64,000 nt of DNA. It comes from Micromonospora sp. NBC_01796. GTDB taxonomy: Bacteria > Actinomycetota > Actinomycetes > Mycobacteriales > Micromonosporaceae. How positions within the stretch are numbered: position 1 is the first letter of the stretch; each line of letters opens with the position of its first letter. The translations under genes were made by a program, and so were the position numbers. Location of the stretch: the NCBI RefSeq assembly GCF_035917455.1, contig NZ_CP109078.1:4402001-4466000 (forward strand), read 5' to 3'. Positions 19,062-56,011 of the stretch are shown here, piece after piece. The notes below the pieces were generated by a model, which was given only the letters and a program-made list of their open reading frames with translations, had not been told where the DNA came from and ran no database searches.

Positions 19062-19919
19062 TCACTTGGGCGGTCGGGCGGAGACCAGTGAGGCGAACAC
19101 CACCACGTTGTCGGCGTACCCGGTCGTGCCGCCCACCCACCGACCACCGCAGGTGATCAGGCGCAGGCCGGGGCGGTCGAAGTCGTCGAACACCTGCTCG
19201 GTGGGGAGTTCCGACTTGTCGTACCGCTTGACGGAGTTCACCTCGAAGACGGCCACCGAGCGGTCCATCCGGGTGACCTCGATCTCGGCGCCGGGCCGGA
19301 TGTCGGCCAGGTCGTGGAAGACCGCCGGACCGGTACGGGTGTCCACGTGGCCGACGATGACGGACGGTCCGTACTGGCCCGGGGTGGGGCTCTGGTCGTA
19401 CCAGCCGGCCTCCTGGTAACGGTCGGGCGGCGGTACGGCGATCGAACCGTCCGGTGCGATCCCGACCCGGTGCACCCGGGCCCGGACGTCCAGCGAGTGG
19501 ATCGCGACGGCGGTCGGCGGGCTCGGCTCCATGACCGGGAACTTGCGCGGGGGTGGCCGGCTGCCGGAGCTGAAACCGGGCAGGAAGTTGGTGCCGGTCA
19601 CGTACTGCACCCCGAACCCGGTGATGATCAGGCCCATCAGCACGATGATGATCGGTATCGGTCCGGGGCGTCGGCGTACCTGACGGGTCCGGGTGACCCG
19701 CTGGCCGGGCGGCCGGACGGTGCCGACCGCACGGGCCGTCCCGACGGCGTGACCCGATCCGGCCGCCCGGGCCCGGTCGGGGCGGAGCGTTCCGGGTGCG
19801 ACCCGGTCGGCGGTGTCCGGGGTGACGATGCTCGCCGCCGACGCCTCGGTGGCGAGCCGCGCGGCGAGGCGGCACACCCGGCTGTGCGCCGCCCGGACCG
19901 GCGCGAGGCGACCGCCCAT
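19062..19919 (-). CDS. Class F sortase
   Basis: 285 aa. A long Arg/Ala-rich cytoplasmic N-terminus and a membrane anchor (IPIIIVLMGLIITGFGVQYV, about residues 88-107) precede the transpeptidase domain. Catalytic residues visible are His in VIVGHVDT and Cys in LRLITCGGR, the latter typical of class F; the Arg may be in that GGR. The enzyme covalently attaches or processes surface proteins outside the cell. It follows a secreted, membrane-tailed protein by 13 bp in one operon. The LPTTG protein encoded at 51158-53080 is another possible substrate in the window. Confidence 0.93.
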   Translation of the reverse strand: MGGRLAPVRAAHSRVCRLAARLATEASAASIVTPDTADRVAPGTLRPDRARAAGSGHAVGTARAVGTVRPPGQRVTRTRQVRRRPGPIPIIIVLMGLIITGFGVQYVTGTNFLPGFSSGSRPPPRKFPVMEPSPPTAVAIHSLDVRARVHRVGIAPDGSIAVPPPDRYQEAGWYDQSPTPGQYGPSVIVGHVDTRTGPAVFHDLADIRPGAEIEVTRMDRSVAVFEVNSVKRYDKSELPTEQVFDDFDRPGLRLITCGGRWVGGTTGYADNVVVFASLVSARPPK

Positions 19920-44106: not shown

Positions 44107-44315
44107 GGGTCGGCTCCTGTCGTCGATCGACTCAGGTGCGCACTCCGTGATCCCACGCGCCGCCGGACGGGACCCCGGACCCGGAGCCAACCGTCGGCGT
44201 GGCGGCTCGGGCCGTGCGCGGACGTACCGCAATGGACGCCCGCACCGATAGTCGCCCCCCACCCCCCTTTAGTTCCCCACCCCCCAAATCCCCCCACCAC
44301 ACCCGCCCCCACCGC

Positions 44316-44376
44316 GTTGATCATGAAGTTAGCGACCCGCCGAGCGTCAAAACTCGTCGCTAACTTCATGATCAAC
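44316..44376. repeat. Palindromic intergenic element 2 (GATCATGAAGTT type)
   Basis: Perfect 21-bp arms (GTTGATCATGAAGTTAGCGA plus C, 44316-44336; complement 44356-44376) surround a 19-nt loop. On the left (44252-44314) the plus strand is C-rich; on the right (44377-44415) it is a run of GGGG-T units. It lies in the 309-bp gap between the PepSY gene and rpmE, 39 bp behind the rpmE stop. It has the same architecture and outer core GATCnTGnAGTT as the element at 38244-38324. Confidence 0.85.
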
Positions 44377-44415
44377 GGAAAGGGGTGGGGTGGGGGTGGG
44401 GGTGGGGGGTGGGGG
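44377..44415 (+). repeat. G-run tract (GGGGT units), potential G-quadruplex
   Basis: At least six runs of four or more G separated by single T, directly between the palindrome and the rpmE stop codon. On the opposite side of the palindrome the complementary C-rich tract covers about 44252-44314. The pairing of C-tract, palindrome and G-tract repeats the plan seen at 38041-38381. Confidence 0.75.
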
Positions 44416-44667
44416 TTAGTGGTTGTGGCGGGCGTATTTGGCGCGGAATTTTTCTACTCGGCCGGCCGTGTCCAGGAGGCGTTGGCGGCCGGTCCAGAAG
44501 GGGTGGCTGGCGGAGGAGATCTCGACGTCGATCACGGGGTACGTGTTGCCGTCGGTCCACTCGATGGTCCGGTCGCTGTTCCCGGTGGAGCGGGTGAGGA
44601 AGGCGAAGTCGGCGCTGCGGTCGCGGTAGACGACGTAGCGGTACTCGGGGTGGATGTTGGGCTTCAC
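44416..44667 (-). CDS. rpmE: Ribosomal protein L31 type B, zinc-free paralogue
   Basis: 83 aa. It matches type B L31: [63 protein letters not shown]. The Cys residues that bind zinc in type A L31 are absent (no Cys at all), so this is the C-minus form used under zinc limitation. The GTG start overlaps the stop of the COG0523 gene by 4 bp (GTGA), so it is expressed from the Zur-box promoter upstream of that gene. Confidence 0.95.
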
Positions 44668-45962
44668 TGTGGTTCGGTTCCTTCCGAAGGTGATTCGAGT
44701 TCCCGTTCCTCGTCGGGGAGCGGGAAGCAGCCGGCGAACGGGTCGGGATAGGTCATCCATTCCAACTCCCCGTCGGCCAACTCGGTGTCGCTGAGCAGGC
44801 AGCCGGCGAGCAGCCGGTGGATCTCCACCGGGTCGAGGTCGAGCCCGATGAAGACCAGGTGGCTGTGCCGGTCCCCGTAGTAGGGGTCCCAGTCCAGGTC
44901 GGCGGCGAGCCGGCGCTGGTCGCTCGCCCCGGTCCAGCGTTCCGGCGGCAGGTTCACCAGCCAGCGACCGAGGGTGCCGAGGTTCAGGCCACCGCCGGCG
45001 AACTCCCAGGCGACCACGGTGTCCGGTTGGCTGGCCAGCCAGAGGTGGCCCCGTGAGCGCAGCGCCTCCCCGGTCACCGTCTCCAGCACGTCGTGCAGCC
45101 GGTCCGGGTGGAACGGGCGGCGGGCGCGGAAGACCGCGGAGACCACACCGGAGTCGGCCAGTGGTTCGTGTACGCCGAGCGGGTAGCCCTCGATGCCACG
45201 GGCCAGTACGCCGGGCGTCTCCGGACGGTGCCGGTGGGTGTGCCGCAGTTGCCGGCTCAACGCGGTGGCGTCGACGAGTCCGTCGTCGGCGGCGGTGACG
45301 TGTACGGCCCACGGCGCGATCCGGTGCAGCAGGATCGCCAGCCGGTCGGTGTCGTACGCGCCGTCCGGGGACTGTCCCCAGAGCACCACGGTGTCGGCGT
45401 ACTCGATCTGTCGGGTGATCACGTCGGCGAGTGCGCGGTCGTCGTCCACGGCTGCCTCGATGCCGAGGGTGACCAGGTCGTCGGTGCTCCCCAGGCCGTC
45501 GAGCAGGTGTTCGGCGTCGACCACGGTCGCGTACGAGTCGACGCGTACGAGGTCGGCGAACGGCACTCCGTCGAGCAGGTGGTGGGCGCAGGCGGCGGCC
45601 ACCGCCTCGGGTTCGACCACCTCGGGCAGCATCAGCACCAGGTCCCGCCGGGGGTGGGTGCGGGCCAGCCGGGCGACGGTGGGCAGGACGTCCTCGCGCA
45701 GGGTGCACGACACGCAGCCGTGCGCCAGGGTGACCGACTCGTCCTCGACGATCCCGGTGTGGTCCCGGACCACCCGGCGCACGTGGCCGTCCCGTACGCC
45801 GGTCAGGTCGTGCCGGACGAGCAGCAAGGTCGGGTCGTCGGCGAGCAGGGCGCGGGCGACGGCGAAGGTGGCCCCTGGCCAGAAGCCGGAGAGCACGGTG
45901 ACCGCCGGTCGCAGGTCGGTCCGGGACTGCGTGACACCCGCCGGGGCAAGCGATGACGACAT
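44664..45962 (-). CDS. COG0523/CobW-family metallochaperone-like protein (degenerate P-loop)
   Basis: 432 aa. The CobW architecture is recognisable: [20 protein letters not shown] at the N-terminus, [14 protein letters not shown] as the metal motif, [10 protein letters not shown], and a C-terminal CobW_C domain with [13 protein letters not shown]. The Walker A lacks GK[ST] (GFWPGATF, residues 26-33) and the usual CxCC is CxSC (83-86). ATG 45962 has AAGGA upstream and a Zur box 20 bp away. COG0523 proteins in Zur regulons are thought to allocate zinc; a degenerate P-loop questions GTP use here. Operon: this gene then rpmE. Confidence 0.9.
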
Positions 45963-45980
45963 GCGGGTCCTTCCATCCGA

Positions 45981-45999
45981 AATGAAAATCGTTGTCATC
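45981..45999. promoter_or_regulatory. Zur box, COG0523-rpmE promoter
   Basis: AATGAAAATCGTTGTCATC; inverted half-sites ATGAaAA and TTgTCAT. It aligns without gaps with two other boxes in the window (46044-46062 and the minus strand of 54615-54633), giving consensus AATGAAAAYSRTTNYCRTY. It lies 19-37 bp upstream of the COG0523 start. Confidence 0.85.
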
Positions 46000-46043
46000 A
46001 TGGCATGGTGCGGGGGAGGATTCCCATCCACCCGGGGTGTGAA

Positions 46044-46062
46044 AATGAAAACGGTTTCCGTT
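46044..46062. promoter_or_regulatory. Zur box, rpmB-rpmG-rpsN-importer promoter
   Basis: AATGAAAACGGTTTCCGTT, half-sites AATGAAAAC and its 7/9-matching inverted partner. It lies 27-45 bp upstream of the rpmB ATG and 44 bp from the first box, so the divergent promoters each have their own operator. A second TGAAAA starts 6 bp upstream (46040), which may extend the site. Confidence 0.82.
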
Positions 46063-46088
46063 AGGGTGTGGGCCGAAGGAGGAACACC

Positions 46089-46325
46089 ATGTCCAGACGA
46101 TGTGCTGTCACCGGTGCCGCACCGAGCTTCGGCAACGCCGTTTCCCACTCCCACCGGCGCACCCGCCGCAGGTGGAACCCCAACCTCCAGCGCCACCGCT
46201 ACCGGGTGGCCGGCGAACGACGCTTCGTCACGCTGACGCTCACCGCAAAGGCGCTGCGTACGGTCGACCGCAAGGGGATCGACCGGGTCGTCGCCGAGCT
46301 GCGGGCTCGCGGGGTCAGGCTCTGA
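46089..46325 (+). CDS. rpmB: Ribosomal protein L28, zinc-free paralogue
   Basis: 78 aa. It matches L28: [32 protein letters not shown] in two parts, [19 protein letters not shown]. Zinc-binding L28 has paired CxxC motifs; here only one Cys (residue 5) remains, so it is the C-minus form. ATG 46089 has AGGAGGAACACC upstream. First gene of a long Zur-controlled operon; the next gene starts in its stop codon (TGATG). Confidence 0.95.
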
Positions 46326-46492
46326 TGGCCCGCCAGACCGACGTCCGCCCGGTGGTCAGGCTCAAGAGCACCGCCGGCACCGGCTACACGTACGTCACCC
46401 GGAAGAACCGGCGCAACAACCCGGATCGGCTGGTCCTGCGCAAGTACGACCCGCTGGTACGCCGACACGTCGACTTCCGTGAGGAGCGCTGA
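46325..46492 (+). CDS. rpmG: Ribosomal protein L33, zinc-free paralogue
   Basis: 55 aa. L33 pattern: [41 protein letters not shown]. There is no Cys, whereas zinc-binding L33 has two CxxC pairs. TGATG coupling on both sides (rpmB stop and rpsN start). Confidence 0.95.
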
Positions 46493-46797
46493 TGGCCCGC
46501 CGGAGTCTCGGCACCCGGCAGGCCAGACGGGCCGACCTGGTGGCCCGGTTCGCGAACCGTCGCGCCGAGCTGAAGCTGCTGATCAGCCACCCCGACACCG
46601 ATCCGGGAGTGCGGGCCGAGGCGGTCCGGCGGCTGGGCCGGCTGCCCCGCGACGCCAGTCCGGTCCGGCTGCGGTGTCGCGACCAGATCGACGGTCGCCC
46701 GCGCGGGGTGCTGTCCCGGTTCGGGCTGTCCCGGGTCCGGTTCCGCGAGTTGGCGTTGCGCGGCGAACTGCCCGGCATCCGCAAGGCGTCCTGGTAG
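46492..46797 (+). CDS. rpsN: Ribosomal protein S14, zinc-free paralogue (long form)
   Basis: 101 aa, the long S14 form. Signs are LVARFANRRAELKLLI, LPRDASPVRLRCRDQIDGRPRGVLSRFGLSRVRFRELA and the end GIRKASW. The zinc-type S14 is ~61 aa with CxxC pairs; here there is one isolated Cys. In mycobacterial Zur operons rpsR2 (S18) usually follows, but here the importer gene follows after 28 bp. Confidence 0.95.
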   Translation: MARRSLGTRQARRADLVARFANRRAELKLLISHPDTDPGVRAEAVRRLGRLPRDASPVRLRCRDQIDGRPRGVLSRFGLSRVRFRELALRGELPGIRKASW

Positions 46798-46825
46798 CCG
46801 GCCGGCCGAGGGGACGAGAACAGGG

Positions 46826-48388
46826 ATGAGAGCGGCCAAGCTCCTGACCGGCGCGGTCGCCGTCGTCGGGCTGCTGTCGGGATGTACGGCCCCGGTCGCG
46901 TTCACCGCGACCGCTGACCGGATCCAGGTGGTCACCACCACCGGGATCCTGGCGGACCTGGTCCGCAACGTCGGCGGCGACCGGGTACTGGTCGACTCGA
47001 TCGTGCCGGACAGCGCCGACTCGCACACGTACGAGCCGACGCTGCGGGACGTACGCAACATCGTCTACGCGGATCTGGCCTTCAGCAACTACCTGCTGCT
47101 GGAGGCCCAGTCCGTGGTCAGGACACTGGACGCGAACCTCCGTCCTGAGGTACCGAACATCTCGCTCGCCGAGGGGGCGACCAAGTACGCCGCCGAGATC
47201 ATCCCGATGGTCGAGGACGCCTCCCTGGACACCATCTGGCTCGGCCTGCGGGTACGCGGGACCGGCCAGCGGTACGGCGCGAACCGGTCCTCGGACATCC
47301 TGCTGTCGGCGACCGAGGTGACCGGGCCGGGCCGGCTCGTCGGATACCTCACCGAGTCGTTCGGGAACCCCGACGTGTACTTCGACTCGGCGGACGGGTT
47401 CGACCCCGGCACCGGCTACCGCGACGACACAGCCACCCTGCCACCGGACGCCCACACGCACATGAGCTGGGCATTCACCGAACCCGGCGTGTACCGGCTC
47501 ACGGTCAGGGCCCAACTGCGGGTGAACCAGCGGGCCGCACCGGTCGAACTCGGACGGCAGCGGTTCACCTTCGCCGTCGGCGTCGACCCGCACTCCGTAC
47601 CCGGTTTCAGCAACCCGGCCGTGCTCGGCCGGGGGCACGCCGACATCGCCGTGGACGTCGACGCCGGGCGTCTCCACCTGTACGCCGATCCGCACGGCGG
47701 TGGCGAGACCGACCAGCAGGTGTACGACCCCGCCACCACCGTGATCGAGGTGCCGAACAAGGGTCTGCTGGAAATTCCCTCCGGTCGGAGCTACCGGTTC
47801 CTGGGCCGGGCCGGTGACCGGATCTTCCAGTTGCCGCAGGCCGTACTCGGCAAACACGTGCACGGGGAGATCGACCCGCACCTGTGGCAGGACGTCGGCA
47901 ACGCGCAGTCCTATGTCGAGCTGATCCGGGACACGCTCATCGGGGTGGATCCGGCGGGCGCGGCGACGTACCGGCGTAACGCCGAGGCGTACCTGGCCGA
48001 ACTCGGCGCCCTCGACACGTACCTGACGGAGCGGATCGCGTCGATTCCCCCGGTCGACCGCCACCTGGTCACCACGCACGACGCGTTCGCGTACCTGGCC
48101 CGGGCGTACGGCATCCCGGTAGCCGGTTTCGTCACCCCGAGCCCGGCCACCGAGCCGAGCCTCGCCGACCGGGTCAGGTTGACCGAGACGATCAGGAACC
48201 TGCGGGTGAAGGCGGTGTTCCTCGAACCGGACCTCAGGGCGCGCTCCGCGACGCTGGTCGAGGTGGCCAGGGAGCAGGGCGTCCGGGTCTGTCCCATCTA
48301 CGGCGACACCTTCAGCGCGACCGTCGACACCTACCTGAAGATGATGCGTTTCAACGCCGACTCCCTCGTGAGCTGTCTGCGGCCGTGA
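46826..48388 (+). CDS. Zinc-type ABC substrate-binding lipoprotein with inserted surface-repeat domain
   Basis: 520 aa, anchored-repeat type substrate-binding subunit. Lipobox LLSGC, lipidated Cys20. ZnuA/cluster A-I fold: His67 in SHTYEP, His352 in DPHLW, His418 in TTHDAFAYLARAYG and Asp494 in YGDTFS are the expected metal ligands. Residues ~130-345, normally a His-rich loop, hold a ~215-residue insert made of the same repeat as the surface proteins of this locus (WLGLRV, HTHMSWAFTEPGVYRLTV, GRGHADIAVD, RFLGRAG), entered in mid-repeat so that its halves are permuted. It delivers metal, most likely Zn2+, to the permease encoded downstream. Confidence 0.9.
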   Translation: MRAAKLLTGAVAVVGLLSGCTAPVAFTATADRIQVVTTTGILADLVRNVGGDRVLVDSIVPDSADSHTYEPTLRDVRNIVYADLAFSNYLLLEAQSVVRTLDANLRPEVPNISLAEGATKYAAEIIPMVEDASLDTIWLGLRVRGTGQRYGANRSSDILLSATEVTGPGRLVGYLTESFGNPDVYFDSADGFDPGTGYRDDTATLPPDAHTHMSWAFTEPGVYRLTVRAQLRVNQRAAPVELGRQRFTFAVGVDPHSVPGFSNPAVLGRGHADIAVDVDAGRLHLYADPHGGGETDQQVYDPATTVIEVPNKGLLEIPSGRSYRFLGRAGDRIFQLPQAVLGKHVHGEIDPHLWQDVGNAQSYVELIRDTLIGVDPAGAATYRRNAEAYLAELGALDTYLTERIASIPPVDRHLVTTHDAFAYLARAYGIPVAGFVTPSPATEPSLADRVRLTETIRNLRVKAVFLEPDLRARSATLVEVAREQGVRVCPIYGDTFSATVDTYLKMMRFNADSLVSCLRP

Positions 48389-48429
48389 GTGGGACAACAA
48401 CAATGCCGACGAGCGCGACAGGGGTTGAG

Positions 48430-49449
48430 ATGACAAAGGGCATCATTCGCGACCATCCGCGGCGGCTGGCGGCCAGCGTCGCCGTGATCCTGGCGGCGGT
48501 CCTCTTGGCGCCTTCGCCAGCGGATGCGGACGACCGTCGGGGCCAGACGTTGGACCCGAACCAGCGGGAGGCGGCCGGGCGGGTCGTGCTGGACAGTGGG
48601 CACGTCGACATCGGCCCGCACTACCGCGACGGAACGTGGACGGTCCGGGTGCATGACGACACCGTCGTACCGTCCGTGTGGCGGCAGCCGTCGGAGGCGG
48701 TGATCCGGGTACGCGACACCGCCGTACTGCCGATCCCGGACGACCCGGCGTACGCGTTCCTCGGCCAGCGTCCCGGCACACCGGTGTACGTGGTGCCGCA
48801 GACGCAGAACCGGGACGTGGTGTGGGTGGGCTGGAACACCCAGGACCCCGGGGTGATGGACACGATCCAGCGCGGCGTGACCATGAAACTGACCGGGGTC
48901 CACGGGCCCGGAAGTCTGATCGTCTACCTCCAGTCCGGGAACCTCGGCGCCCCGCAGGTCCTGTGGGACTCCACCAAGACCCTCCCGCAGGACCTGTGGG
49001 TGGACACGAACACCCACACGCACGCGAACTGGGTCTTCGGCGGGCCGGGTGTCTACCTGGTGGCCTTGGAGATCACCGCCGATCTGGCCGACGACCGGCC
49101 CCTGACCGGTACCGGTGTCCTCCGGTTCGCGGTCGGGGACACCACCGGCACCGACGAGGCGTTCACCGCCGGCTATCCCGCGTCGGGCACCCCGGCCGGC
49201 GGTGACACCACCCCGGCTCCCGGTACCGCCCCGATCCCGGCCCCGGCCTCGGACGCGAAGGCCGGACCGTCGCTCGATGGGGACGGCCCGGACCCGGCCA
49301 TCCTCACGACCGTGGTGATCACCGTCGCCGGGCTGGCGCTCGTCGCCGCGGCGATCCTGGTGCTGGTACGCGGTCGGCGCGCCAAGAGGCGAGCCGAAGC
49401 GGAACGCTCGGCCACGGTACCGACGGCGGAGGCGGGTGGTGAGCGGTGA
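48430..49449 (+). CDS. Membrane-anchored surface protein with one anchored-repeat domain
   Basis: 339 aa. Signal peptide (RRLAASVAVILAAVLLAPSPADA, cleavage near 33). One repeat at ~52-235: LDSGHVDIGPHY, PAYAFLGQRPGTPVYVVPQTQ, VWVGWNTQ, LTGVHGPGSLIVYL, NTHTHANWVFGGPGVYLV. Then comes a Pro/Ala-rich linker, a membrane helix (~295-320) and a basic tail; no LPxTG. ATG 48430 has AGGGG 5 nt upstream; GTG 48385, overlapping the previous stop, would add 15 residues. Encoded between the binding protein and the ATPase, so a dedicated importer partner. Confidence 0.88.
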   Translation: MTKGIIRDHPRRLAASVAVILAAVLLAPSPADADDRRGQTLDPNQREAAGRVVLDSGHVDIGPHYRDGTWTVRVHDDTVVPSVWRQPSEAVIRVRDTAVLPIPDDPAYAFLGQRPGTPVYVVPQTQNRDVVWVGWNTQDPGVMDTIQRGVTMKLTGVHGPGSLIVYLQSGNLGAPQVLWDSTKTLPQDLWVDTNTHTHANWVFGGPGVYLVALEITADLADDRPLTGTGVLRFAVGDTTGTDEAFTAGYPASGTPAGGDTTPAPGTAPIPAPASDAKAGPSLDGDGPDPAILTTVVITVAGLALVAAAILVLVRGRRAKRRAEAERSATVPTAEAGGER

Positions 49450-50216
49450 ACCCGGTGCTCGTGGTCGAGGGACTGAGCGTGGAACTCGGCGGCCGGCTCG
49501 CGCTGAGGGAGGTGGACCTGACGATCGACGTCGGGGAACTGGTGGGGCTGGTCGGGCCGAACGGGGCAGGCAAGACGACCCTGCTGCGGTCCGTACTCGG
49601 CCTGGTCCGGGCGGGGCGGGGGCGGATCACGGTGGCCGGCAGGCCGGCGCGGGCGGGTACGGCCACGGTCGGCTACGTGCCGCAGCGCCACGAGTTCACC
49701 TGGGACTTTCCCATCTCGGTGGAGGACGCCGTGATGACCGGCCGGACCGGGCGGATCGGCCTGTTGCGCCGCCCACGGGTGGCCGACTGGCACGCGGTAG
49801 GGGACGCGCTGGACCGGGTACGCCTCACCGACCTGCGCCGCCGCCCGGTCGGCGAACTCTCCGGCGGCCAGCGGCAGCGCGTACTCGTGGCCCGTGCACT
49901 TGCCGTGCGGCCGGAGATCCTGCTGTTGGACGAGCCGTTCACCGGCCTGGACATGCCTACCCAGGAACTACTCGGCGAGTTGTTCACCTCGCTGGCGAAG
50001 GAGAGCGCGGTCCTGATGGCCACCCACGACCTGGCGGCGGCGGTGTACGGCTGCGACCGGCTGGCCCTGCTGAACCAGACGATGATCGCCACCGGCCGAC
50101 CGGACCAGCTCCGGGACCGTCACCTGTGGATGGAAACGTTCCAGGTGAGCGAGCACAGCCATCTGTTGCGGACGCTCGGCCTGGCCACCATCCCGGCCGC
50201 GAACGTGGGGGCGTGA
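49446..50216 (+). CDS. ABC importer ATPase (zinc/manganese type, anchored-repeat system)
   Basis: 256 aa. Walker A GPNGAGKTT, Q-loop YVPQRHEFTWDFPISVEDAV (the FxWDFP block is typical of metal-type ATPases), signature LSGGQRQR, Walker B ILLLDEPFTGLD, switch His ATHD. It energises metal uptake with the permease that begins 1 bp after its stop. GTG start in a GTGA overlap with the surface-protein gene. Confidence 0.93.
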   Translation: MNPVLVVEGLSVELGGRLALREVDLTIDVGELVGLVGPNGAGKTTLLRSVLGLVRAGRGRITVAGRPARAGTATVGYVPQRHEFTWDFPISVEDAVMTGRTGRIGLLRRPRVADWHAVGDALDRVRLTDLRRRPVGELSGGQRQRVLVARALAVRPEILLLDEPFTGLDMPTQELLGELFTSLAKESAVLMATHDLAAAVYGCDRLALLNQTMIATGRPDQLRDRHLWMETFQVSEHSHLLRTLGLATIPAANVGA

Positions 50217-50217
50217 C

Positions 50218-51066
50218 GTGTCACCGGTCGACTTCATCGCCGATCTGCTCAACCCCGACCTGTCCTTCCTGCCCAAGGCGCTGTTCATCGCGGTGGTGTC
50301 GGCGATCGTCTGCGGGGTGATCGGCTGCCATGTGGTGCTGCGCGGCATGGCGTTCATTGGCGACGCGGTCGCCCACGCGGTGTTCCCCGGCCTTGCTGTC
50401 GCGTTTGTCGTATCCGGCAACCTGGTGCTCGGCGGCACCGTCGCCGGGATCCTCACCGCCCTGCTGATCGCGGTGTTCTCGCAGAACCGGCGGCTGCGGG
50501 AGGACTCCGTCATCGGCGTCTTCTTCGTCGCCGCGTTCGCGCTCGGTGTCGTGGTCATCTCCCGGGCACCGGGGTACGCCGGATCGCTGCAGCAGTTCCT
50601 GTTCGGCTCGATCACCGGCATCCCGGACCGGGACCTCCTCGTCGTGGGGGTGACCGGGTTGATCCTGCTCCTGGTCGCGTTCCTACTACACAAGGAGTTC
50701 GTCGCGGTCACCCTCGACCGGGAGATGGCCAGGGCCATCGGCCTGCGGGCATTCTGGCTCGACATCGTCCTCTACGTGATGGTCACCCTCGCGGTGGTCA
50801 TCTCGGTCCAGACCATCGGCAACATCCTGGTGCTGGCCCTGCTGGTCACCCCGGCCTCGGCGGCCCGGCTGCTGACCGACCGGCTGGGCGTCATGATGCT
50901 GCTGGCGCCGGTCATCGGCGGCCTGTCGGCCCTGCTCGGCCTGTACGTCTCCTGGTCGTGGGACCTGCCCGTGGGCGGCACGATCGTGCTCGCCCTGACC
51001 GCGGTCTTCCTGCTCGCCTGGCTCTTCGCGCCCCGGCACGGACTACTCGCCAGGTACGTCTTCTAG
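50218..51066 (+). CDS. ABC importer permease (ZnuB type, anchored-repeat system)
   Basis: 282 aa, about eight helices of the ABC-3 family. Signs are CHVVLRGMAFIGDAVAHAVFPGLAVAF, GVFFVAAFALGVVVISR, LDREMARAIGLRAFWLDIVLY and IGNILVLALLVTPASAARLLTDR, all typical of zinc/manganese permeases. GTG start directly behind the ATPase. Last gene of the Zur operon; a 15-bp terminator follows its stop. Confidence 0.93.
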   Translation: MSPVDFIADLLNPDLSFLPKALFIAVVSAIVCGVIGCHVVLRGMAFIGDAVAHAVFPGLAVAFVVSGNLVLGGTVAGILTALLIAVFSQNRRLREDSVIGVFFVAAFALGVVVISRAPGYAGSLQQFLFGSITGIPDRDLLVVGVTGLILLLVAFLLHKEFVAVTLDREMARAIGLRAFWLDIVLYVMVTLAVVISVQTIGNILVLALLVTPASAARLLTDRLGVMMLLAPVIGGLSALLGLYVSWSWDLPVGGTIVLALTAVFLLAWLFAPRHGLLARYVF

Positions 51067-51077
51067 TACCCGGCACG

Positions 51078-51113
51078 ACAGTGCCGGCCCGCCGTCGCGC
51101 GGGCCGGCACTGT
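51078..51113. terminator. Perfect 15-bp hairpin between the converging importer and surface-protein operons
   Basis: ACAGTGCCGGCCCGC and its exact complement (51099-51113) with a 6-nt loop, 11 bp behind the permease stop and 44 bp from the end of the LPTTG protein gene. It serves both directions. Confidence 0.85.
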
Positions 51114-51157
51114 GACGGCCGTGGGTCAGTTCCCTCGTCCGTACCCCCGGACGATCC

Positions 51158-53080
51158 TCATGCCTGTCGACGTCGCCTCGTGAGCAGGAACAGGGCGCCG
51201 CCGGCCAGCAGCAGGCCCGTACCGAGGTAGATCGGCGTGACCAGCGAGTCGCCGGTGGTCGGGAGTCGACCGCCCGCGCCGCCGCAGCCGGTGTCGGTCG
51301 TCTTCGTCAGCAGCGCGGACGGATCGGCGTCACCCACGGCAACCGTCAGCACCTGCGTGTCGGTCGAGATCGTGCCCGAGGCCAGCTTCGCCGACTGGGT
51401 GAACGTCAGCCGGTACGCGCCCTGCCTGGTGAAGGCCCAGTTGCCGTGTGCGTGCGTACCGAGGGGGATGTCGTAGCTGTCCGGGAGCCCGTCTGCGCTG
51501 TTGAGGACGACAACCGGCTTGCCGAACGCGTCGAGCTGGTAGACGGCCACCGCTCCCGGCCCGTTCACCCCGGTGAGCTTCCACGTCACCGGCCCGCTGA
51601 CCTGGGAGGTCTTCAGCTCCTCGGTGTTCCAGCCGGCCCAGAGGAGGTTCTGGTTCTGGGTCTGCGGGATCTGCCACACGGTCGTTGCGGCGGGACCGAG
51701 GAAGTCGAACTGCCCACCGGGCGGAACGGTGACCGCCGCGGCCGGCCTGACCTGGAACACCACCTGCGACGGGCTGCGCCAGGTGGTGCCGTTGCCGGTC
51801 GTACCGTCCTTGATCTGCGAGACCAGGCGCCCGCCGACGATGCGGGCGGCATAGTCCACGTGCCCCTGGCTCAGCACCACGCCGCTCGTCCGGGTGGTCG
51901 GCACGCAGGCCGGGGTGGTCGGGGCGGCGGTGGTCGGACGGCCGGTCGCGGTGGCCGACGCGGTCGGTGTCGGTGAAACGGTACGGGGCGAGTTGGGCGA
52001 CGGGGTCGGGGTTGGGCTCGGAGGCGATGTGGTGGTACCCGTCGGTGTGGGGGAGCCGGTCGGGGGCGGATTGCCCTGGTCATCGGTGACCAGGTGAATC
52101 ACCGGCGTCGACGTCGAGCGCTGGTGGTCGTTGTCGTATCGGGGTGAGAAGCGGCCGGTGATCGAGTGTTCGCCCACGGCCAGCGCGGTCGTGGTCAGCG
52201 TCGCGGTTCCGTCGGCGCCGACCTCTGCGTACCCGAGCGGCGTCTCGCCGTCGAAGAACTCGATCCACCCGGTCGCCCCGGCCGGTCCGACCGTACCGGT
52301 GAGGGCCACCGGGGTTCCCGCCGACGATGACGGGGGATCGACCGTGACCCCCGTGGCGGTCGGCTCGCCGATCACGTCGGCCGCGGAGGCGCCGCCCACG
52401 AACCAGGTGTAGTCGACCGGCCCGGAGGTCAGGGTGGCGCCACCGGCGATGGTCGCGGTGGCCTCGAAGGTGAGGGTGTAGCGCCCGAGTGCGGTGAACA
52501 CCCAGTTTGCGTGTACGTGCGAGAACACCGGCTGCCGCAGCGAGGCGTACGCGGGGTCGACCGAGCTGAAGTTGCGGATGGGCATACCGACCGGATCGCT
52601 CTGGAACACCTCGACCCGTCCCGGGCCGTGCACCGCCCGCAGGTGCAGGTCCACCGCGTCGTCGGTGAACACGCCGCTCGGCAGGCTCTCGGTGTCCCAA
52701 CCGGGCCAGAGCAGGCCGTCGAGCTGGGTCATCGGAGCCAGCCACAGTGGTGCGCCGGCCGGTCCCAGGAACGCGTACTCCGGCAGGTCCGGTACGCCCG
52801 CCGCCGAGAGTTCGTTGTCGAAGAGCTGGAAGACGATCTCGCTCGGATCCGCGTGTACGTGGTCCGGGGCGTTGCCGATCCGCGTCTTCAGGCACAGGTT
52901 TCCGTCCACGTACTGCACGTCGACGGCATCGGTGTGGACGTTGTTGACGACGGTTCGCTGGATGCTCGCCGGGGGTGCGGCCAGCACCTCGGTGGCGGGC
53001 AGGGTCCACGGGACCAGAGCTGTCGCCGCTGTCGCCGCGGCGGCTACCGCGGCGAGTCGGATTCTCGCCGTGCCTGACAT
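51158..53080 (-). CDS. Wall-anchored protein (LPTTG) with two anchored-repeat domains
   Basis: 640 aa. Signal peptide to about residue 35. Repeat 1 (~45-230; HVHANWVF at 188-195), an Ig-like domain (~243-330), a Pro/Thr/Ser spacer (~336-390), repeat 2 (~398-585; GHVDYAARI, FLGPAATTVWQIPQTQ, WAGWNTEE, HAHGNWAF at 543-550), then LPTTG at 606-610, a membrane helix and RRRR. This is a classical sortase sorting signal. ATG 53080 has GGGAG 9 nt upstream. The product should be linked to peptidoglycan with the repeats spaced out from the wall. Third gene of the minus-strand Zur operon. Confidence 0.9.
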   Translation of the reverse strand: MSGTARIRLAAVAAAATAATALVPWTLPATEVLAAPPASIQRTVVNNVHTDAVDVQYVDGNLCLKTRIGNAPDHVHADPSEIVFQLFDNELSAAGVPDLPEYAFLGPAGAPLWLAPMTQLDGLLWPGWDTESLPSGVFTDDAVDLHLRAVHGPGRVEVFQSDPVGMPIRNFSSVDPAYASLRQPVFSHVHANWVFTALGRYTLTFEATATIAGGATLTSGPVDYTWFVGGASAADVIGEPTATGVTVDPPSSSAGTPVALTGTVGPAGATGWIEFFDGETPLGYAEVGADGTATLTTTALAVGEHSITGRFSPRYDNDHQRSTSTPVIHLVTDDQGNPPPTGSPTPTGTTTSPPSPTPTPSPNSPRTVSPTPTASATATGRPTTAAPTTPACVPTTRTSGVVLSQGHVDYAARIVGGRLVSQIKDGTTGNGTTWRSPSQVVFQVRPAAAVTVPPGGQFDFLGPAATTVWQIPQTQNQNLLWAGWNTEELKTSQVSGPVTWKLTGVNGPGAVAVYQLDAFGKPVVVLNSADGLPDSYDIPLGTHAHGNWAFTRQGAYRLTFTQSAKLASGTISTDTQVLTVAVGDADPSALLTKTTDTGCGGAGGRLPTTGDSLVTPIYLGTGLLLAGGALFLLTRRRRQA

Positions 53081-53204
53081 TCCTTGTCTCTCCCTGTGTC
53101 GGGGGCGGGCGCCACGGGCGTGGCACACGCAAAACGCCGCCGACCGTGGGGCCGACTCCGGGTGGAATCGGCCCGCACGGTTTTCGTGGCGGTGCAGGTG
53201 CCGG

Positions 53205-53858
53205 TCAGCCGGCCTGGAAGGTGTACGTGACCGCGCCCGAGGTGGCTCCGGCGCCGTTCTGGGCGGTTGCCCTGAACGTCAGGGTGTAGGTGCCCGCGGT
53301 GGAGAAGGCCCAGTTGCCGTGCGCGTGCGTACCGGCGGCGATGCCGCCCGGCCACACCGACACCGGGCAGCCGGCGGCGGTGTTGGTGTTCAACTTGAAG
53401 CTGGGCGTGGCCGGGAAACCGCCGGTGGTGTAGAGGGCGAAACGGGACCCGGCCGGCCCGGACCAGCCGGTCAACTCCAGCTTGACCGGGCCCTGGGCGG
53501 CCGGCACGTCGGTGGTGTTCCAACCGGCGTACAGCCGGTCCGAGACGAGGGTCTGCGGGGCCACGTACATGGTGGTTCCGGCCGGGCCGAGGCACTGCCA
53601 CGCGGTCCCGCTCGGGATGGTGGCCGTGGCGGCGGGGGTCACCCGGAGCACCTGCCCGGCCGGCGACAGGTCGTCGTTGTCCGGCGCGTACGTCTTGAGA
53701 TCGAGGGTCAGGGTGTTGTCGGCGGCGTTGTAGTCCACGTCGAACACGTCGAGGTGTCCGGTTTCGATGGTGGCCGCCATCGCCGGTGAGGCGGTGAAGA
53801 CGGTCGCCGCCACGGTCAGTACGGCGGTGAGGCCGAACAGCCGGTTCTTGAGTTTCAT
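53205..53858 (-). CDS. Secreted single-repeat protein without anchor
   Basis: 217 aa. Signal peptide (LFGLTAVLTVAATVFTASPAMA). One anchored-repeat domain: IETGHLDVFDVDY, CLGPAGTTMYVAPQTL, YAGWNTTDV, LELTGWSGPAGSRFALY, HAHGNWAFSTAGTYTLTF; ends TFQAG with no helix or LPxTG, so it is probably released as a soluble protein. Two Cys (WQCLG, AAGCPV) could form a disulfide. ATG 53858 has GGAGGACC upstream. Middle gene of the minus-strand operon. Confidence 0.9.
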   Translation of the reverse strand: MKLKNRLFGLTAVLTVAATVFTASPAMAATIETGHLDVFDVDYNAADNTLTLDLKTYAPDNDDLSPAGQVLRVTPAATATIPSGTAWQCLGPAGTTMYVAPQTLVSDRLYAGWNTTDVPAAQGPVKLELTGWSGPAGSRFALYTTGGFPATPSFKLNTNTAAGCPVSVWPGGIAAGTHAHGNWAFSTAGTYTLTFRATAQNGAGATSGAVTYTFQAG

Positions 53859-53911
53859 GAGGGTCCTCCGGAGGGGGTTCGGGCGCGCGGGGCTGCTCGG
53901 TGCGAGCTGTC

Positions 53912-54568
53912 TCAGGACAGGACGGCGAACTTGATCCAGACCGGCGCCGAGGTGACCGTCTCGCCGCTCGCGGCCAGGGTGGCGGTCGCGTCGATCTTGA
54001 CCAGGTAGATGCCGGCCTTCTCGAACGCCCAGTTCGCGTGCAGGTGCACTCCCGCCGGCAGGGTGACCACGTCGGGCAGCCCGTCCTCGCTGTCGGCGAG
54101 CACGGTCGGCGCGCCGACCGGGTCGGTGGTGAACAGGCTCAGTCCGTCCGGGCCGAGGACCTGCTTGAACCGGATCCGGATGCTGTCTGCGGTGAAGACA
54201 CCGGGTTCGATCTCCTCGGTGGAAAGGCCGGGCCAGAGCAGGGTGGGGTCCTGCGTCTCGGGCAGCACCCAGACCGGCGCGCCCGGGGCACCCAGGAACG
54301 CGTACGCCGGGTCGTCCGGCACGGTGGTTTTCGCCTGGCGCTTGGTCACCAGGAGTACGTCGGCCGGGTCCCGCTCGACGTCCGGCTCGACCGACTCGTC
54401 GTGGATCGTGATTCCCAACTCGCCGTCCTCGTAGGCGACGTCCACCGCGTCGACGTGACCCTGCGAGATCACCGTGACGGCGTTGGCCTGCGCGGGGGCT
54501 GAGAAGGCCAGGACACCCGCGGTGAGCGCCGCCGTGACGGCGACGAGCCCTGCGGTTCGTGAACGCAT
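53912..54568 (-). CDS. Secreted single-repeat protein, first gene of surface-protein operon
   Basis: 218 aa. Signal peptide (AVTAALTAGVLAFSAPAQA). One repeat domain: ISQGHVDAVDVAYEDGELG, PAYAFLGAPGAPVWVLPETQ, LLWPGLSTEEI, HLHANWAFEKAGIYLVKI; ends KFAVLS without an anchor. ATG 54568 has AAGGAG 7 nt upstream, and a consensus promoter with an embedded Zur box lies 47-75 bp away. Soluble partner of the wall-bound and membrane-bound forms. Confidence 0.9.
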   Translation of the reverse strand: MRSRTAGLVAVTAALTAGVLAFSAPAQANAVTVISQGHVDAVDVAYEDGELGITIHDESVEPDVERDPADVLLVTKRQAKTTVPDDPAYAFLGAPGAPVWVLPETQDPTLLWPGLSTEEIEPGVFTADSIRIRFKQVLGPDGLSLFTTDPVGAPTVLADSEDGLPDVVTLPAGVHLHANWAFEKAGIYLVKIDATATLAASGETVTSAPVWIKFAVLS

Positions 54569-54614
54569 GCGGTTTCTCCTTCATAGACAGAGCCACCTTC
54601 CGTGACCCGGCCTA

Positions 54615-54643
54615 AACGATAATGATTTTCATTTGCGTGTCAA
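54615..54643 (-). promoter_or_regulatory. Zur box within the surface-protein operon promoter
   Basis: On the minus strand TTGACA (54643-54638) and TATCGT (54621-54616) are 16 bp apart, and the 19-bp box AATGAAAATCATTATCGTT (54633-54615) fills the spacer and -10. Zur bound here would exclude RNA polymerase. The box is 88 bp upstream of the divergent zur start and may also act on zur. Confidence 0.85.
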
Positions 54644-54720
54644 GGGAGTTGAGCCCGGAGGAGAGGCGCACGCCGTACACTTGGCCCCGCTCGTACGCCC
54701 GAGTCGGGAAGGTGTCGCTC

Positions 54721-55134
54721 GTGATCAATTCCATGCCCGGGGTCACTCGCAACACCCGGCAACGTGGCGAGGTCGTCGCCCTGCTCGGTGAGGTGACCGA
54801 GTTCCGCAGCGCCCAGCAGCTCCACGCCGACCTGCGCCAGCGCGGTGTCGGGGTCGGACTGACCACGGTCTACCGGACCCTGCAGACGCTGGTCGACGCG
54901 GGCGAGATCGACGTCATGCGGCTGCCCAACGGGGAGCAGCTCTACCGGCGGTGCAGCCCGACCCACCACCATCACCTGGTCTGCCGGCACTGCGCCCGTA
55001 CGGTCGAGGTGGCCGGACCGACGGTCGAGACCTGGACCAAACGGGTTGCCGACGAACACGGCTTCACCGACGTGGGGCACACGCTGGAGATCTTCGGCAC
55101 CTGCGCCCAGTGCGCGGCCCAACGGCAGGGCTGA
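54721..55134 (+). CDS. zur: Zinc uptake regulator Zur (FUR family)
   Basis: 137 aa. Winged HTH with the FUR helix LTTVYRTLQTLVDAG (47-61). Metal sites: HHHH at 82-85, CRHC at 88-91 and CAQC at 128-131 (structural zinc), plus HGFTDVGHTLEIFG. With zinc it should bind the three boxes found in this window and shut off the zinc-free ribosomal genes, the importer and the surface proteins. GTG 54721 has GGAAGG 8 nt upstream; an ATG four codons later is possible. Fur and Nur paralogues are less likely given the target genes. Confidence 0.94.
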   Translation: MINSMPGVTRNTRQRGEVVALLGEVTEFRSAQQLHADLRQRGVGVGLTTVYRTLQTLVDAGEIDVMRLPNGEQLYRRCSPTHHHHLVCRHCARTVEVAGPTVETWTKRVADEHGFTDVGHTLEIFGTCAQCAAQRQG

Positions 55135-55141
55135 CGACCCG

Positions 55142-56011
55142 GTGAGTGGTCGGCTCCGGGAGATCGGCCGGCAGACCGTCGAGATCGCCGAGTCCGGCCA
55201 CTACACGAGCCCCGCCGGTACGCGGATCAGCATCGCCGAGGCGGTCGGCGCCGCGATCGCCGGCACCCGGCACTACCTGCCGGACACCCCGTTACCCGAA
55301 CCCGCGCCGCGACCGTCCCCGGCACCAGCGGACGAGGCGGGAACCGGGCAGCCGCTGGAGCGGCCGGCGGTGACGGTGACCCGTGAGTCGACCCTGGGCG
55401 CCGCCGCGCGGTTCGGTCCGGACGTGGCCTGCCTGGTGTTCGCCTCGGCGAAGAACCCCGGTGGTGGTTTCCTCGGCGGCGCCAAGGCGCAGGAGGAGGA
55501 CATCGCCCGCGCCTCGGCCCTCTACCCGTGCCTGCGCAGCGCTCCGGAGTTCTACGAGTTCCACCGCAACCAGCAGGACCTGCGCTACAGCGACCGGGTG
55601 ATCTACTCACCGGGGGTCCCGGTGTTCCGGGACGAGCGGGGTCACCTGCTCGACCGGCCCTTCCGGAGCGCGTTCCTGACCTCGGCCGCGCCGAACCTCG
55701 GGGCGATCGTGCGCAACCAGCCGGCGGACGCCGCCGACGTACCCGGGGTGCTGGGGCGGCGGGCCGAGCGGGTGCTCCGGATCGCCGCCGCGCACGGCCA
55801 CCGCCGGTTGGTGCTCGGGGCCTGGGGCTGCGGGGTGTTCCGCAACGATCCCGGCACCGTGGCGCGGGCGTTCGCCGAGGCGCTGCGGGTGGTCGACCGG
55901 TTCGACGAGGTGGTGTTCGCGATCTACGACAAGATGCCGGGTACCCCGGTCCACGCCGCCTTCGACGAGGTCATGCGGGGGTGGCGAGACCGGCCAGGGT
56001 CGCCTGGATGA
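55142..56011 (+). CDS. TIGR02452 family protein (microbial PARG-like macrodomain)
   Basis: 289 aa. The N-terminal PARG_cat-like part has LREIGRQTVEIAESGHY. The PARG signature is intact: ASAKNPGGGFLGGAKAQEED with the GGG loop and the QEE pair that includes the catalytic Glu. Then AFLTSAAPNLGA and LVLGAWGCGVFRNDP, a phosphate-binding loop. The family removes ADP-ribose chains in some bacteria. GTG 55142 lies 7 bp after the zur stop with no clear ribosome site of its own, so it is likely co-transcribed and coupled. Its 3' end overlaps the convergent XRE gene by 41 bp. Confidence 0.9.
   Translation: MSGRLREIGRQTVEIAESGHYTSPAGTRISIAEAVGAAIAGTRHYLPDTPLPEPAPRPSPAPADEAGTGQPLERPAVTVTRESTLGAAARFGPDVACLVFASAKNPGGGFLGGAKAQEEDIARASALYPCLRSAPEFYEFHRNQQDLRYSDRVIYSPGVPVFRDERGHLLDRPFRSAFLTSAAPNLGAIVRNQPADAADVPGVLGRRAERVLRIAAAHGHRRLVLGAWGCGVFRNDPGTVARAFAEALRVVDRFDEVVFAIYDKMPGTPVHAAFDEVMRGWRDRPGSPG

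What the first reader, a model, noticed from the sequence alone, without database searches (positions are those of the whole stretch)
44416..55134. Single-locus Zur island linking zinc-free ribosomal proteins to an anchored-repeat metal importer
Seen: Cys-poor L31, L28, L33 and S14 paralogues, a COG0523 protein, a complete ZnuABC-like importer, four secreted repeat proteins and zur in 10.7 kb, arranged in three transcripts. Known: C-minus ribosomal paralogues are markers of Zur control; anchored-repeat ABC systems are recognised in actinobacteria but their substrate is not established to my knowledge. Inference: this locus assigns them to zinc, with wall-bound, membrane-bound and free forms of one repeat handing metal to the lipoprotein.
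Basis: partly seen in the sequence, partly recalled or inferred. Interest (0 to 1): 0.85.

Follow-up and report, generated by a model that had tools for sequence, protein, structure and literature searches.

The report
Zinc-starvation island with surface zinc-binding proteins
A bacterium of the Micromonospora family keeps zinc-free spare ribosomal parts, a zinc importer, surface proteins related to known zinc binders and a zinc-sensing switch side by side; the importer type is already known, but its zinc-catching protein carries a rearranged copy of the surface domain at the spot where relatives receive zinc.

Summary
In detail: 44416-55134 encodes Cys-poor L31, L28, L33 and S14, a COG0523-type protein, an anchored-repeat ABC importer, four further repeat proteins and a Zur regulator, with three Zur-type boxes in two divergent promoter regions. 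New here: (1) the solute-binding protein carries a repeat domain in circularly permuted order where ZnuA has its His-rich loop and AztC its transfer loop; both halves are permuted in 60 of 63 proteins examined, one half was found in 3, none is colinear. (2) Zur-type boxes precede repeat/importer genes in 67 of 80 related loci (random windows: means 4.75-7.45), and in 34 of 41 loci that gave no training sites. (3) C-minus L28/L33/S14 genes lie within 10 kb in 26 of 80. (4) The COG0523-type protein is MRF-like, below that model's cut-off, without P-loop. (5) A second zur stands beside an ordinary znuACB elsewhere. Handover of zinc from wall to lipoprotein remains inference; published genetics partly contradict simple feeding.

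The parts
44416..44667 (-). C-minus type B ribosomal protein L31 (0 Cys); GTG start overlaps the stop of the upstream gene by 4 bases
   Evidence: NF002462 127.7 bits, cut-off 86; start and stop read
44664..45962 (-). COG0523-type, MRF-like protein without P-loop (SGFWPGATF for SGFLGAGKT) and with GCVSC (CxxC)
   Evidence: NF047431 282.3 bits, below its cut-off 375; PF07683 and PF02492; P-loop loss
45983..45997 (.). Zur-type box 1, 20 bases upstream of the MRF-like gene
   Evidence: TGAAAATCGTTGTCA, 1 mismatch; PWM 33.7 bits
46046..46060 (.). Zur-type box 2, 28 bases upstream of the L28 gene
   Evidence: TGAAAACGGTTTCCG, 3 mismatches; PWM 30.3 bits
46089..46325 (+). C-minus ribosomal protein L28 (1 Cys)
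   Evidence: TIGR00009 87 bits; C-plus paralogue elsewhere in the genome
46325..46492 (+). C-minus ribosomal protein L33 (0 Cys)
   Evidence: NF001860 81.6 bits
46492..46797 (+). C-minus ribosomal protein S14 (1 Cys)
   Evidence: NF006477 118.6 bits; C-plus paralogue elsewhere
46826..48388 (+). Anchored-repeat ABC solute-binding lipoprotein (ZnuA-like; lipobox LLSGC)
   Evidence: TIGR03772 769.9 bits; AlphaFold model pLDDT 80.5, core matches PsaA/MntC/YfeA/AztC/TroA folds
47186..47830 (+). Inserted, circularly permuted repeat domain within the solute-binding protein (approximate limits; HTH half first, HAD half second)
   Evidence: NF038134 55-184 then 2-73; own profile 147-235 then 48-123; strand order
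48430..49449 (+). ZnuE-like membrane-anchored single-repeat protein
   Evidence: NF038134 192 bits; long C-terminal helix in model and hydrophobic C-terminal stretch
49446..50216 (+). Importer ATPase
   Evidence: TIGR03771 361.3 bits
50218..51066 (+). Importer permease
   Evidence: TIGR03770 458.9 bits
51158..53080 (-). Two-repeat surface protein with Big_3_5 domain and LPTTG sorting signal
   Evidence: TIGR03773 313.3 bits, TIGR01167 21.1 bits; PF16640
53205..53858 (-). Secreted single-repeat protein without recognised anchor
   Evidence: NF038134 124.8 bits; N- and C-termini read
53912..54568 (-). Secreted single-repeat protein without recognised anchor
   Evidence: NF038134 177.4 bits; N- and C-termini read
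54616..54643 (-). Promoter-like site TTGACA-16-TATCGT for the leftward repeat genes, overlapping Zur-type box 3
   Evidence: only sigma-70-type match in 44200-55400; shuffles mean 0.4, sd 0.7, so weak by itself
54617..54631 (.). Zur-type box 3, between the repeat operon (48 bases away) and zur (89 bases away)
   Evidence: CGATAATGATTTTCA, 2 mismatches; PWM 34.3 bits
54721..55134 (+). Zur regulator (GTG start preferred, ATG at 54733 possible)
   Evidence: PF01475 98.1 bits; best solved relatives 3mwm, 7vo0 and 2o03

Best explanation
This is a Zur-repressed zinc-deficiency island. When zinc falls, Zur leaves three boxes in two divergent promoter regions and the units switch on together. Zinc-free L31, L28, L33 and S14 replace zinc-binding copies and release zinc. 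An MRF-like protein without a P-loop may tie this to ribosome hibernation. An anchored-repeat ABC importer takes up zinc, and wall-bound, membrane-bound and unanchored repeat proteins bind zinc outside the cell. The solute-binding lipoprotein carries the same repeat domain, circularly permuted, in the place of the His-rich or transfer loop of ZnuA/AztC. I propose that it is the receiving site: surface or membrane repeats pass zinc to this built-in copy, which passes it through an invariant HVH motif to the cleft ligands. Shown by sequence: gene content, boxes, permutation, ligand conservation. Shown by others in C. diphtheriae: Zur repression, role in zinc-limited growth, zinc binding. Inferred: regulation here, hibernation role, the relay. 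The confidence given is for the Zur-controlled zinc island; the relay alone is about 0.38 (see the section on the most novel reading).
For: Zur-type boxes at 45983, 46046 and 54617, 0.27 matches expected; box 3 overlaps the only promoter-like site found. A PWM trained on boxes upstream of C-minus/COG0523 genes finds sites upstream of repeat or solute-binding genes in 67 of 80 loci at each of four thresholds, against means of 4.75-7.45 and a maximum of 14 in random windows; 63 of 80 at 18 bits; 34 of 41 among loci without any such training gene. Zur is closest to solved actinobacterial Zur. Third cleft ligand is His, as in zinc-binding AztC, where YfeA has Glu. Published experiments: PMC6711530 and PMC12445094. 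Permutation. The insert runs directly into the DPHLW ligand motif, where E. coli ZnuA has its His-rich stretch. AztC needs its flexible loop to receive zinc from AztD. HxD and HxH are invariant in 61 of 61 ZnuE-type and 63 of 63 solute-binding sequences, the window's included. The order SBP-repeat-ATPase-permease holds in 78 of 80 loci; in the other 2 (L113, L123) the contigs are short.
Against: No expression or metal data from this organism. In C. diphtheriae the znuA mutant has a weak phenotype, znuF/znuG deletion restores growth of a znuAECB mutant, and their overexpression slows growth, which fits zinc holding or storage better than feeding. His-to-Ala ZnuE still responded to zinc and ZnuG was unclear, so the HxD/HxH site is not proven. 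13 of 80 loci had no box upstream of repeat/importer genes, and 43 of 236 boxes of 18 bits or more in the 80 loci are not upstream of a labelled gene. The 80 loci are the best of 359 relatives by similarity to this importer, are not independent, and two pairs (L121/L122, L138/L139) look like near-duplicates.
Confidence: 0.82

Rival explanations
1. The wall-bound and unanchored repeats are a zinc sponge or store (or deny zinc to neighbours) and do not feed this importer; only ZnuE works with the transporter.
For: C. diphtheriae znuF/znuG deletion restores growth of a znuAECB mutant and their overexpression reduces growth. The repeat genes here form a separate leftward unit.
Against: The same domain sits inside the solute-binding protein and in ZnuE, which suggests a shared partner or transfer function. 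The authors also allow that ZnuF/ZnuG facilitate transport.
Confidence: 0.35
2. The permuted insert is only a docking module that lets ZnuE or the permease hold the solute-binding protein; it does not itself carry zinc.
For: Domain-domain docking would explain conservation, and I saw no measurement of metal binding by the insert.
Against: All four putative ligands (HxH and HxD) are invariant in 63 of 63 sequences, more than docking alone needs.
Confidence: 0.3
3. The importer mainly carries manganese or another metal and shares Zur control only loosely.
For: Proteins of this fold include manganese binders; manganese MntC and EfaA models score on the solute-binding protein, though below their cut-offs (200.8 of 400, 134.8 of 485).
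Against: His at the third ligand position, Zur-type boxes, C. diphtheriae genetics. Of 24 recurring neighbour clusters all 24 representatives were scanned with Pfam: none hit a manganese- or haem-specific family, though 5 had no hit and one is a P-type metal ATPase of unknown metal.
Confidence: 0.05
4. Co-location is shared regulation only: ribosomal and import genes were gathered under common boxes without coupling in one mRNA or in timing.
For: Zur control of C-minus ribosomal genes and importers is usual in other bacteria (PMC6103462, passages).
Against: Here S14 is followed after 28 bases by the importer genes with no Zur-type box in the gap (best score -9.0 bits), so one transcript is likely, although a weak match (10.9 bits) lies at the ZnuE start, 48431. 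C-minus genes run straight into repeat or solute-binding genes in 13 of 80 loci.
Confidence: 0.25

Closest known systems
ZnuAECB-ZnuFG system of Corynebacterium diphtheriae (PMC6711530, PMC12445094)
   Same: Anchored-repeat solute-binding protein, ZnuE-type membrane repeat protein between it and the ATPase, ATPase, permease, wall-associated repeat proteins with HxD/HxH; Zur-type control. The 2025 paper notes that its ZnuA carries the motif in reverse orientation. [quoted passage not shown]
   Different: Here the operon starts with C-minus L28-L33-S14, an MRF-like/L31 pair is divergent, zur is in the island, and there are two unanchored single-repeat proteins. C. diphtheriae has DIP0444/0445 in its cluster; where its zur lies I did not see.
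AztABCD of Paracoccus denitrificans (PMC7463823, PMC6689063)
   Same: Zur-controlled ABC zinc importer with a separate zinc-binding partner; best solved match of the C-terminal lobe by single-sequence search (5w56); a flexible loop before ligand His138 is needed to receive zinc.
   Different: AztC model NF040870 198.5 bits, below its cut-off 350; the partner here is a different domain and a copy of it occupies the loop position.
Streptococcal AdcA (ZnuA-like fused to ZinT) and Pht proteins
   Same: Zinc partner domain fused to the solute-binding protein; surface zinc-binding repeats (as told in passages of PMC6689063, and the discussion of PMC12445094).
   Different: Other domains and motifs; here the fused domain is an internal, circularly permuted insertion. 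No sequence comparison with ZinT or Pht was made.
Mycobacterial C-minus operon with Mrf (PMC13418864, one passage)
   Same: C-minus ribosomal genes beside an Mrf gene with a zinc-binding CxxC.
   Different: No anchored-repeat importer in that passage; the protein here scores below the MRF cut-off.

Membership tests
Anchored-repeat (choice-of-anchor M) ABC zinc importer | Solute-binding protein, ATPase and permease above TIGR03772/TIGR03771/TIGR03770 cut-offs | tested here: met
   769.9/361.3/458.9 bits against 350.45/268.8/296.8
Anchored-repeat (choice-of-anchor M) ABC zinc importer | Repeat domains with HxD and HxH | tested here: met
   NF038134 over cut-off in four repeat proteins and the solute-binding protein; motifs listed
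Anchored-repeat (choice-of-anchor M) ABC zinc importer | Repression by zinc through Zur | tested here: inconclusive
   Zur-type boxes found; no expression data
Anchored-repeat (choice-of-anchor M) ABC zinc importer | Zinc binding and uptake | not testable with these tools
   Only by homology to C. diphtheriae
Zur (actinobacterial) | Closer to solved actinobacterial Zur than to Fur/PerR | tested here: met
   3mwm E 4.3e-50, 2o03 1.2e-45, best Fur 4.6e-19
Zur (actinobacterial) | NCBIfam zinc uptake repressor Zur model PRK11639 | tested here: not met
   38.9 bits against 167; I recall that this model describes the enterobacterial protein, so I do not treat it as defining for actinobacterial Zur
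C-minus ribosomal paralogues | Loss of the CxxC pairs, with a C-plus copy elsewhere | tested here: met
   Both shown for L28 and S14; for L31 and L33 only the absence of Cys
MRF (NF047431) | Score above curated cut-off 375 | tested here: not met
   282.3 bits; so called MRF-like only
MRF (NF047431) | CxxC and no P-loop, as in above-cut-off members | tested here: met
   18 of 18 printed rows at 257 bits or more (10 above cut-off, one the window's own) show no GK[ST] in the first 45 residues and have CxxC; the 3 printed rows at 201 bits or less keep GAGKT; 21 of 24 hits were printed
AztABCD | AztC above cut-off | tested here: not met
   198.5 bits against 350

The most novel reading that the evidence does not exclude
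The anchored-repeat importers use a homotypic zinc relay. One domain type captures zinc in the wall, carries it at the membrane (ZnuE), and a circularly permuted copy of the same domain, built into the solute-binding protein where other zinc binders have their transfer loop, receives it and feeds the cleft. In this genome, and in part in some Micromonospora relatives, the relay genes appear to be transcribed together with the genes that replace zinc-binding ribosomal proteins, so external capture and internal release would start at once instead of in steps.
Probability: 0.38. Interest if true: 0.74.

Novelty: new variant of a known kind. Interest (0 to 1): 0.5.

Why it matters
It extends the anchored-repeat zinc importers from one pathogen to a wide set of actinomycetes with consistent Zur-type boxes, and gives a concrete, testable reading of the odd motif order noted in the C. 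diphtheriae ZnuA: a permuted copy of the surface domain sits at the zinc-receiving loop. It also offers a natural operon in which ribosomal zinc release and zinc import should be switched on together, and it questions the GTPase label of MRF, since the P-loop is absent from all 10 above-cut-off members looked at.

Tried and rejected
Of the 17 places 5 score 12 bits or more with the PWM. pdb_via was not on the machine. No model coordinates were laid in the Python box, so ligand distances in the models were not measured, and the strand orders were compared by eye. Foldseek of the ZnuE model gave no match at E 0.001 or better (best 1.1e-3), so no solved relative of the repeat fold is claimed.

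A control with 100 permuted palindromes gave a mean of 1.52 sites, but one pattern (AAATGAT half) gave 66 and two others 17 and 13. The sites of the first proved largely to be boxes of the same kind in a shifted register or with CGA half-sites; the other two were not looked at. The literal consensus thus undercounts boxes, and I used a PWM. Its 22 training 21-mers include some in promoters shared with repeat genes; the cleaner test is the 41 loci without any training gene (34 with a box). First-order Markov shuffles gave 0 sites in three runs and were judged too weak as the only control, hence random windows.

A C-terminal anchor classification of repeat proteins was too loose (it called two of the window's four 'sortase-like') and is not used. 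The most frequent neighbour cluster (22 loci) has a representative antisense to ZnuE without Pfam hit and was set aside as spurious. Three of 24 MRF hits were not printed. For the solute-binding alignment I used 62 of 80 loci, for the ZnuE alignment 60 of 80, leaving out mostly close relatives.

Rejected: manganese or haem importer; 'only Zur locus of the genome'; 'three transcripts'.
Full report
What is there. The window lies at 4402001-4466000 of an 8.56-Mb single-contig genome. The family is Micromonosporaceae by inference: the same-family genome G496 has a contig C44 of 72,516 bases, the length of a Phytohabitans maris contig, and Phytohabitans belongs to Micromonosporaceae. Between 44416 and 55134 I find 13 genes in at least four transcription units by direction. 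Leftward: an MRF-like COG0523-type gene (44664-45962) and C-minus L31 (44416-44667), overlapping by 4 bases. Rightward: L28, L33, S14, solute-binding protein, ZnuE-type protein, ATPase, permease (46089-51066), with gaps of 28 bases before the solute-binding gene, 41 before the preferred ATG of ZnuE, and otherwise overlaps or 1 base. Leftward: two unanchored single-repeat proteins and a two-repeat LPTTG protein (54568-51158). Rightward: zur (54721-55134).

Ribosomal proteins. L31 and L33 here have no Cys, L28 and S14 one each. The genome's other L28 and S14 keep CxxC pairs. In relatives' loci every matched ribosomal gene was Cys-poor over the matched stretch: L31 0 Cys in 18 of 18, L28 1 Cys in 23 of 23, L33 0 in 23 of 23, S14 0 in 19 and 1 in 2 of 21.

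Regulation. The Zur-type pattern gives 6 matches with up to 3 mismatches in the window, at three places of the island (45983, 46046, 54617); 0.27 expected, none of 100 shuffles with 6. The consensus follows published actinobacterial boxes (passages of PMC5472717 and PMC7174638). Box 3 overlaps the only sigma-70-like site found in 11.2 kb; shuffles give 0.4 on average, so that site is weak evidence by itself. With the PWM the window holds two further weak matches of 9 bits or more outside the boxes and their shifted register, 9.1 bits at 32028 and 10.9 bits at 48431, the latter at the ZnuE start. I fetched 80 related loci from named genomes (359 relatives found, best 80 kept, up to 10 kb on each side). 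The pattern with up to 2 mismatches occurs 68 times in 39 of them, 54 times within the 9.5% of sequence upstream of labelled genes. Of 100 permuted palindromes the mean is 1.52 sites, with outliers of 66, 17 and 13; the first proved largely to be boxes of the same kind in another register. A PWM trained on C-minus/COG0523 upstreams found boxes upstream of repeat or solute-binding genes in 67 of 80 loci, against means of 4.75-7.45 (maximum 14) in random windows; 63 of 80 at 18 bits, and 34 of the 41 loci without any training gene. 43 of 236 boxes of 18 bits or more lie elsewhere in the loci. The loci are not independent.

Co-occurrence. C-minus L28, L33 or S14 lie within 10 kb in 26 of 80 loci and run directly into repeat or solute-binding genes in 13. 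Besides Micromonospora and kin (Verrucosispora, Plantactinospora, Paractinoplanes), the 26 include Jiangella, Actinophytocola, Blastococcus, Streptomyces and MAGs named Actinomyces, Microthrixaceae and Propionicimonas, some with one such gene only. The importer itself is patchy: 37 of 121 genomes of the family and 3 of 396 across the phylum, this genome counted in both, at E 1e-60.

The permuted domain. All 7 matches to NF038134 in the genome lie in this island. In the solute-binding protein the model is matched 55-184 first and 2-73 second; the second part is below the family cut-off alone. A profile built from ZnuE-type proteins finds both parts in permuted order in 60 of 63 solute-binding proteins (the window's and 62 of the 80 loci), one part in 3, colinear in none. 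AlphaFold models agree by eye: strands from 117 to 230 of the solute-binding protein follow the order of ZnuE strands 96 to 201, and strands from 244 to 314 that of ZnuE 18 to 88 (mean pLDDT 80.5 and 88.1, pTM 0.73 and 0.72). The insert ends at GKHVHGEIDPHLW, where E. coli ZnuA has a His-rich stretch followed by MHLW. In AztC the disordered loop 117-133 before ligand His138 is needed for zinc transfer from AztD (passages of PMC7463823 and PMC6689063). HxH, HxD, HVH and the cleft residues His, His, His, Asp are invariant in 63 of 63 sequences; HxD and HxH in 61 of 61 ZnuE-type proteins. The third cleft ligand is His as in AztC; the aligned YfeA has Glu. The solute-binding core matches manganese, iron and zinc binders alike by fold, so the fold does not decide the metal.

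What was known. PMC6711530 (passages) lists the C. diphtheriae anchored-repeat genes as zinc- and Zur-repressed, and remarks that the cluster is flanked by rplL, rplJ and rpoBC, whose expression did not change with zinc. PMC12445094 (abstract, introduction, first and zinc-binding results sections, discussion) shows a role of znuE in zinc-limited growth, zinc-dependent thermal shifts of ZnuE, ZnuF and ZnuG, and wall location of ZnuF and ZnuG. It notes that ZnuA carries the motif 'in the reverse orientation' with 45 residues between; words beginning with 'permut', 'insertion' and 'ribosomal' do not occur in its main text. Searches for circular permutation or domain insertion in zinc solute-binding proteins and for the family names listed no other description (listings only, open-licence PMC only; the best 8 of 146 were listed).

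Against a simple feeding chain. In C. diphtheriae, deletion of znuF and znuG restores growth of a znuAECB mutant, overexpression slows growth, znuA deletion is mild, and His-to-Ala ZnuE still responds to zinc. I therefore keep storage and docking as serious rivals.

The COG0523-type protein. Its best model is MRF (282 bits, cut-off 375). It has SGFWPGATF in place of SGFLGAGKT and GCVSC in place of GCICC; 14 of the 80 loci hold a near copy with SGFW. All 10 above-cut-off MRF hits in other genomes also show no P-loop. PMC13418864 (one passage) says that Mrf lies with C-minus genes, helps Mpy to bind the ribosome and has a zinc-binding CxxC. A hibernation role here is inference.

The rest of the genome. 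A second zur (71% identity) stands with an ordinary znuACB at about 4.643-4.646 Mb, with a weaker box (19.2 bits) near the znuA start. Two further boxes are at a ParA/CooC-like ATPase (28.1 bits, 41 bases upstream) and at a PF01497-type binding protein (25.5 bits, overlapping the likely start codon). The ATPase has a box close to its start in 4 of 4 loci among the 80 where it was found.

Verdict. Observation confirmed; interpretation partly supported; the system is a variant of a published zinc importer, with a new structural reading that is worth testing. Interest 0.5.

Noticed in passing
window 44319-44373: Perfect inverted repeat GATCATGAAGTTAGCGAC with 19-nt spacer in the gap between the L31 gene and a PepSY-TM gene; the arm (up to 2 mismatches) occurs 49 times forward and 48 times reverse in the genome, mostly as pairs at near-constant spacing, 0 for the reversed control. 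A REP/MITE-like or terminator element.
   Followed up: partly
L149:2640-3667 (G000:C1:5004639 onward): Zur-type box (28.1 bits) upstream of a ParA/CooC-like ATPase; the same ATPase is a neighbour in L075, L078, L100 and L105 with a box (18.9-22.1 bits) near its start. Candidate new Zur-regulon member.
   Followed up: partly
L148:3805-4802 (G000:C1:6591804 onward): Zur-type box (25.5 bits) overlapping the likely start of a PF01497 periplasmic-binding protein, possibly a metallophore uptake system.
   Followed up: no
L146:5033-8482 (G000:C1:4643032-4646481): Second zur with ordinary znuACB in the same genome; two Zur copies may share or divide the regulon.
   Followed up: partly
L160-L168 and L178: NCBIfam's 'ribosome hibernation factor-recruiting GTPase MRF' members show no GTPase P-loop in 10 of 10 above-cut-off hits.
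   Followed up: partly
L079:7414-8613 and its cluster: A WxLIP peptidoglycan-binding-domain protein (PF06030 in the one member scanned) recurs near the repeat genes in 20 of 80 loci; I did not notice it in the window's island but did not search for it there.
   Followed up: no
L080:4658-5233 and its cluster: A protein with an OmpR-type DNA-binding domain (PF00486) recurs in 9 of 80 loci; in L080 it lies between the MRF-like and L28 genes.
   Followed up: no
window 19083-19502 (-): One of five sortase-family matches in the genome lies in the window, about 32 kb from the LPTTG repeat gene.
   Followed up: no
G396:C1:2775105-2776561 and G451:C1:557594-559038: The solute-binding gene is split into two pieces in these two family members; a true split or a sequencing error was not checked.
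   Followed up: no
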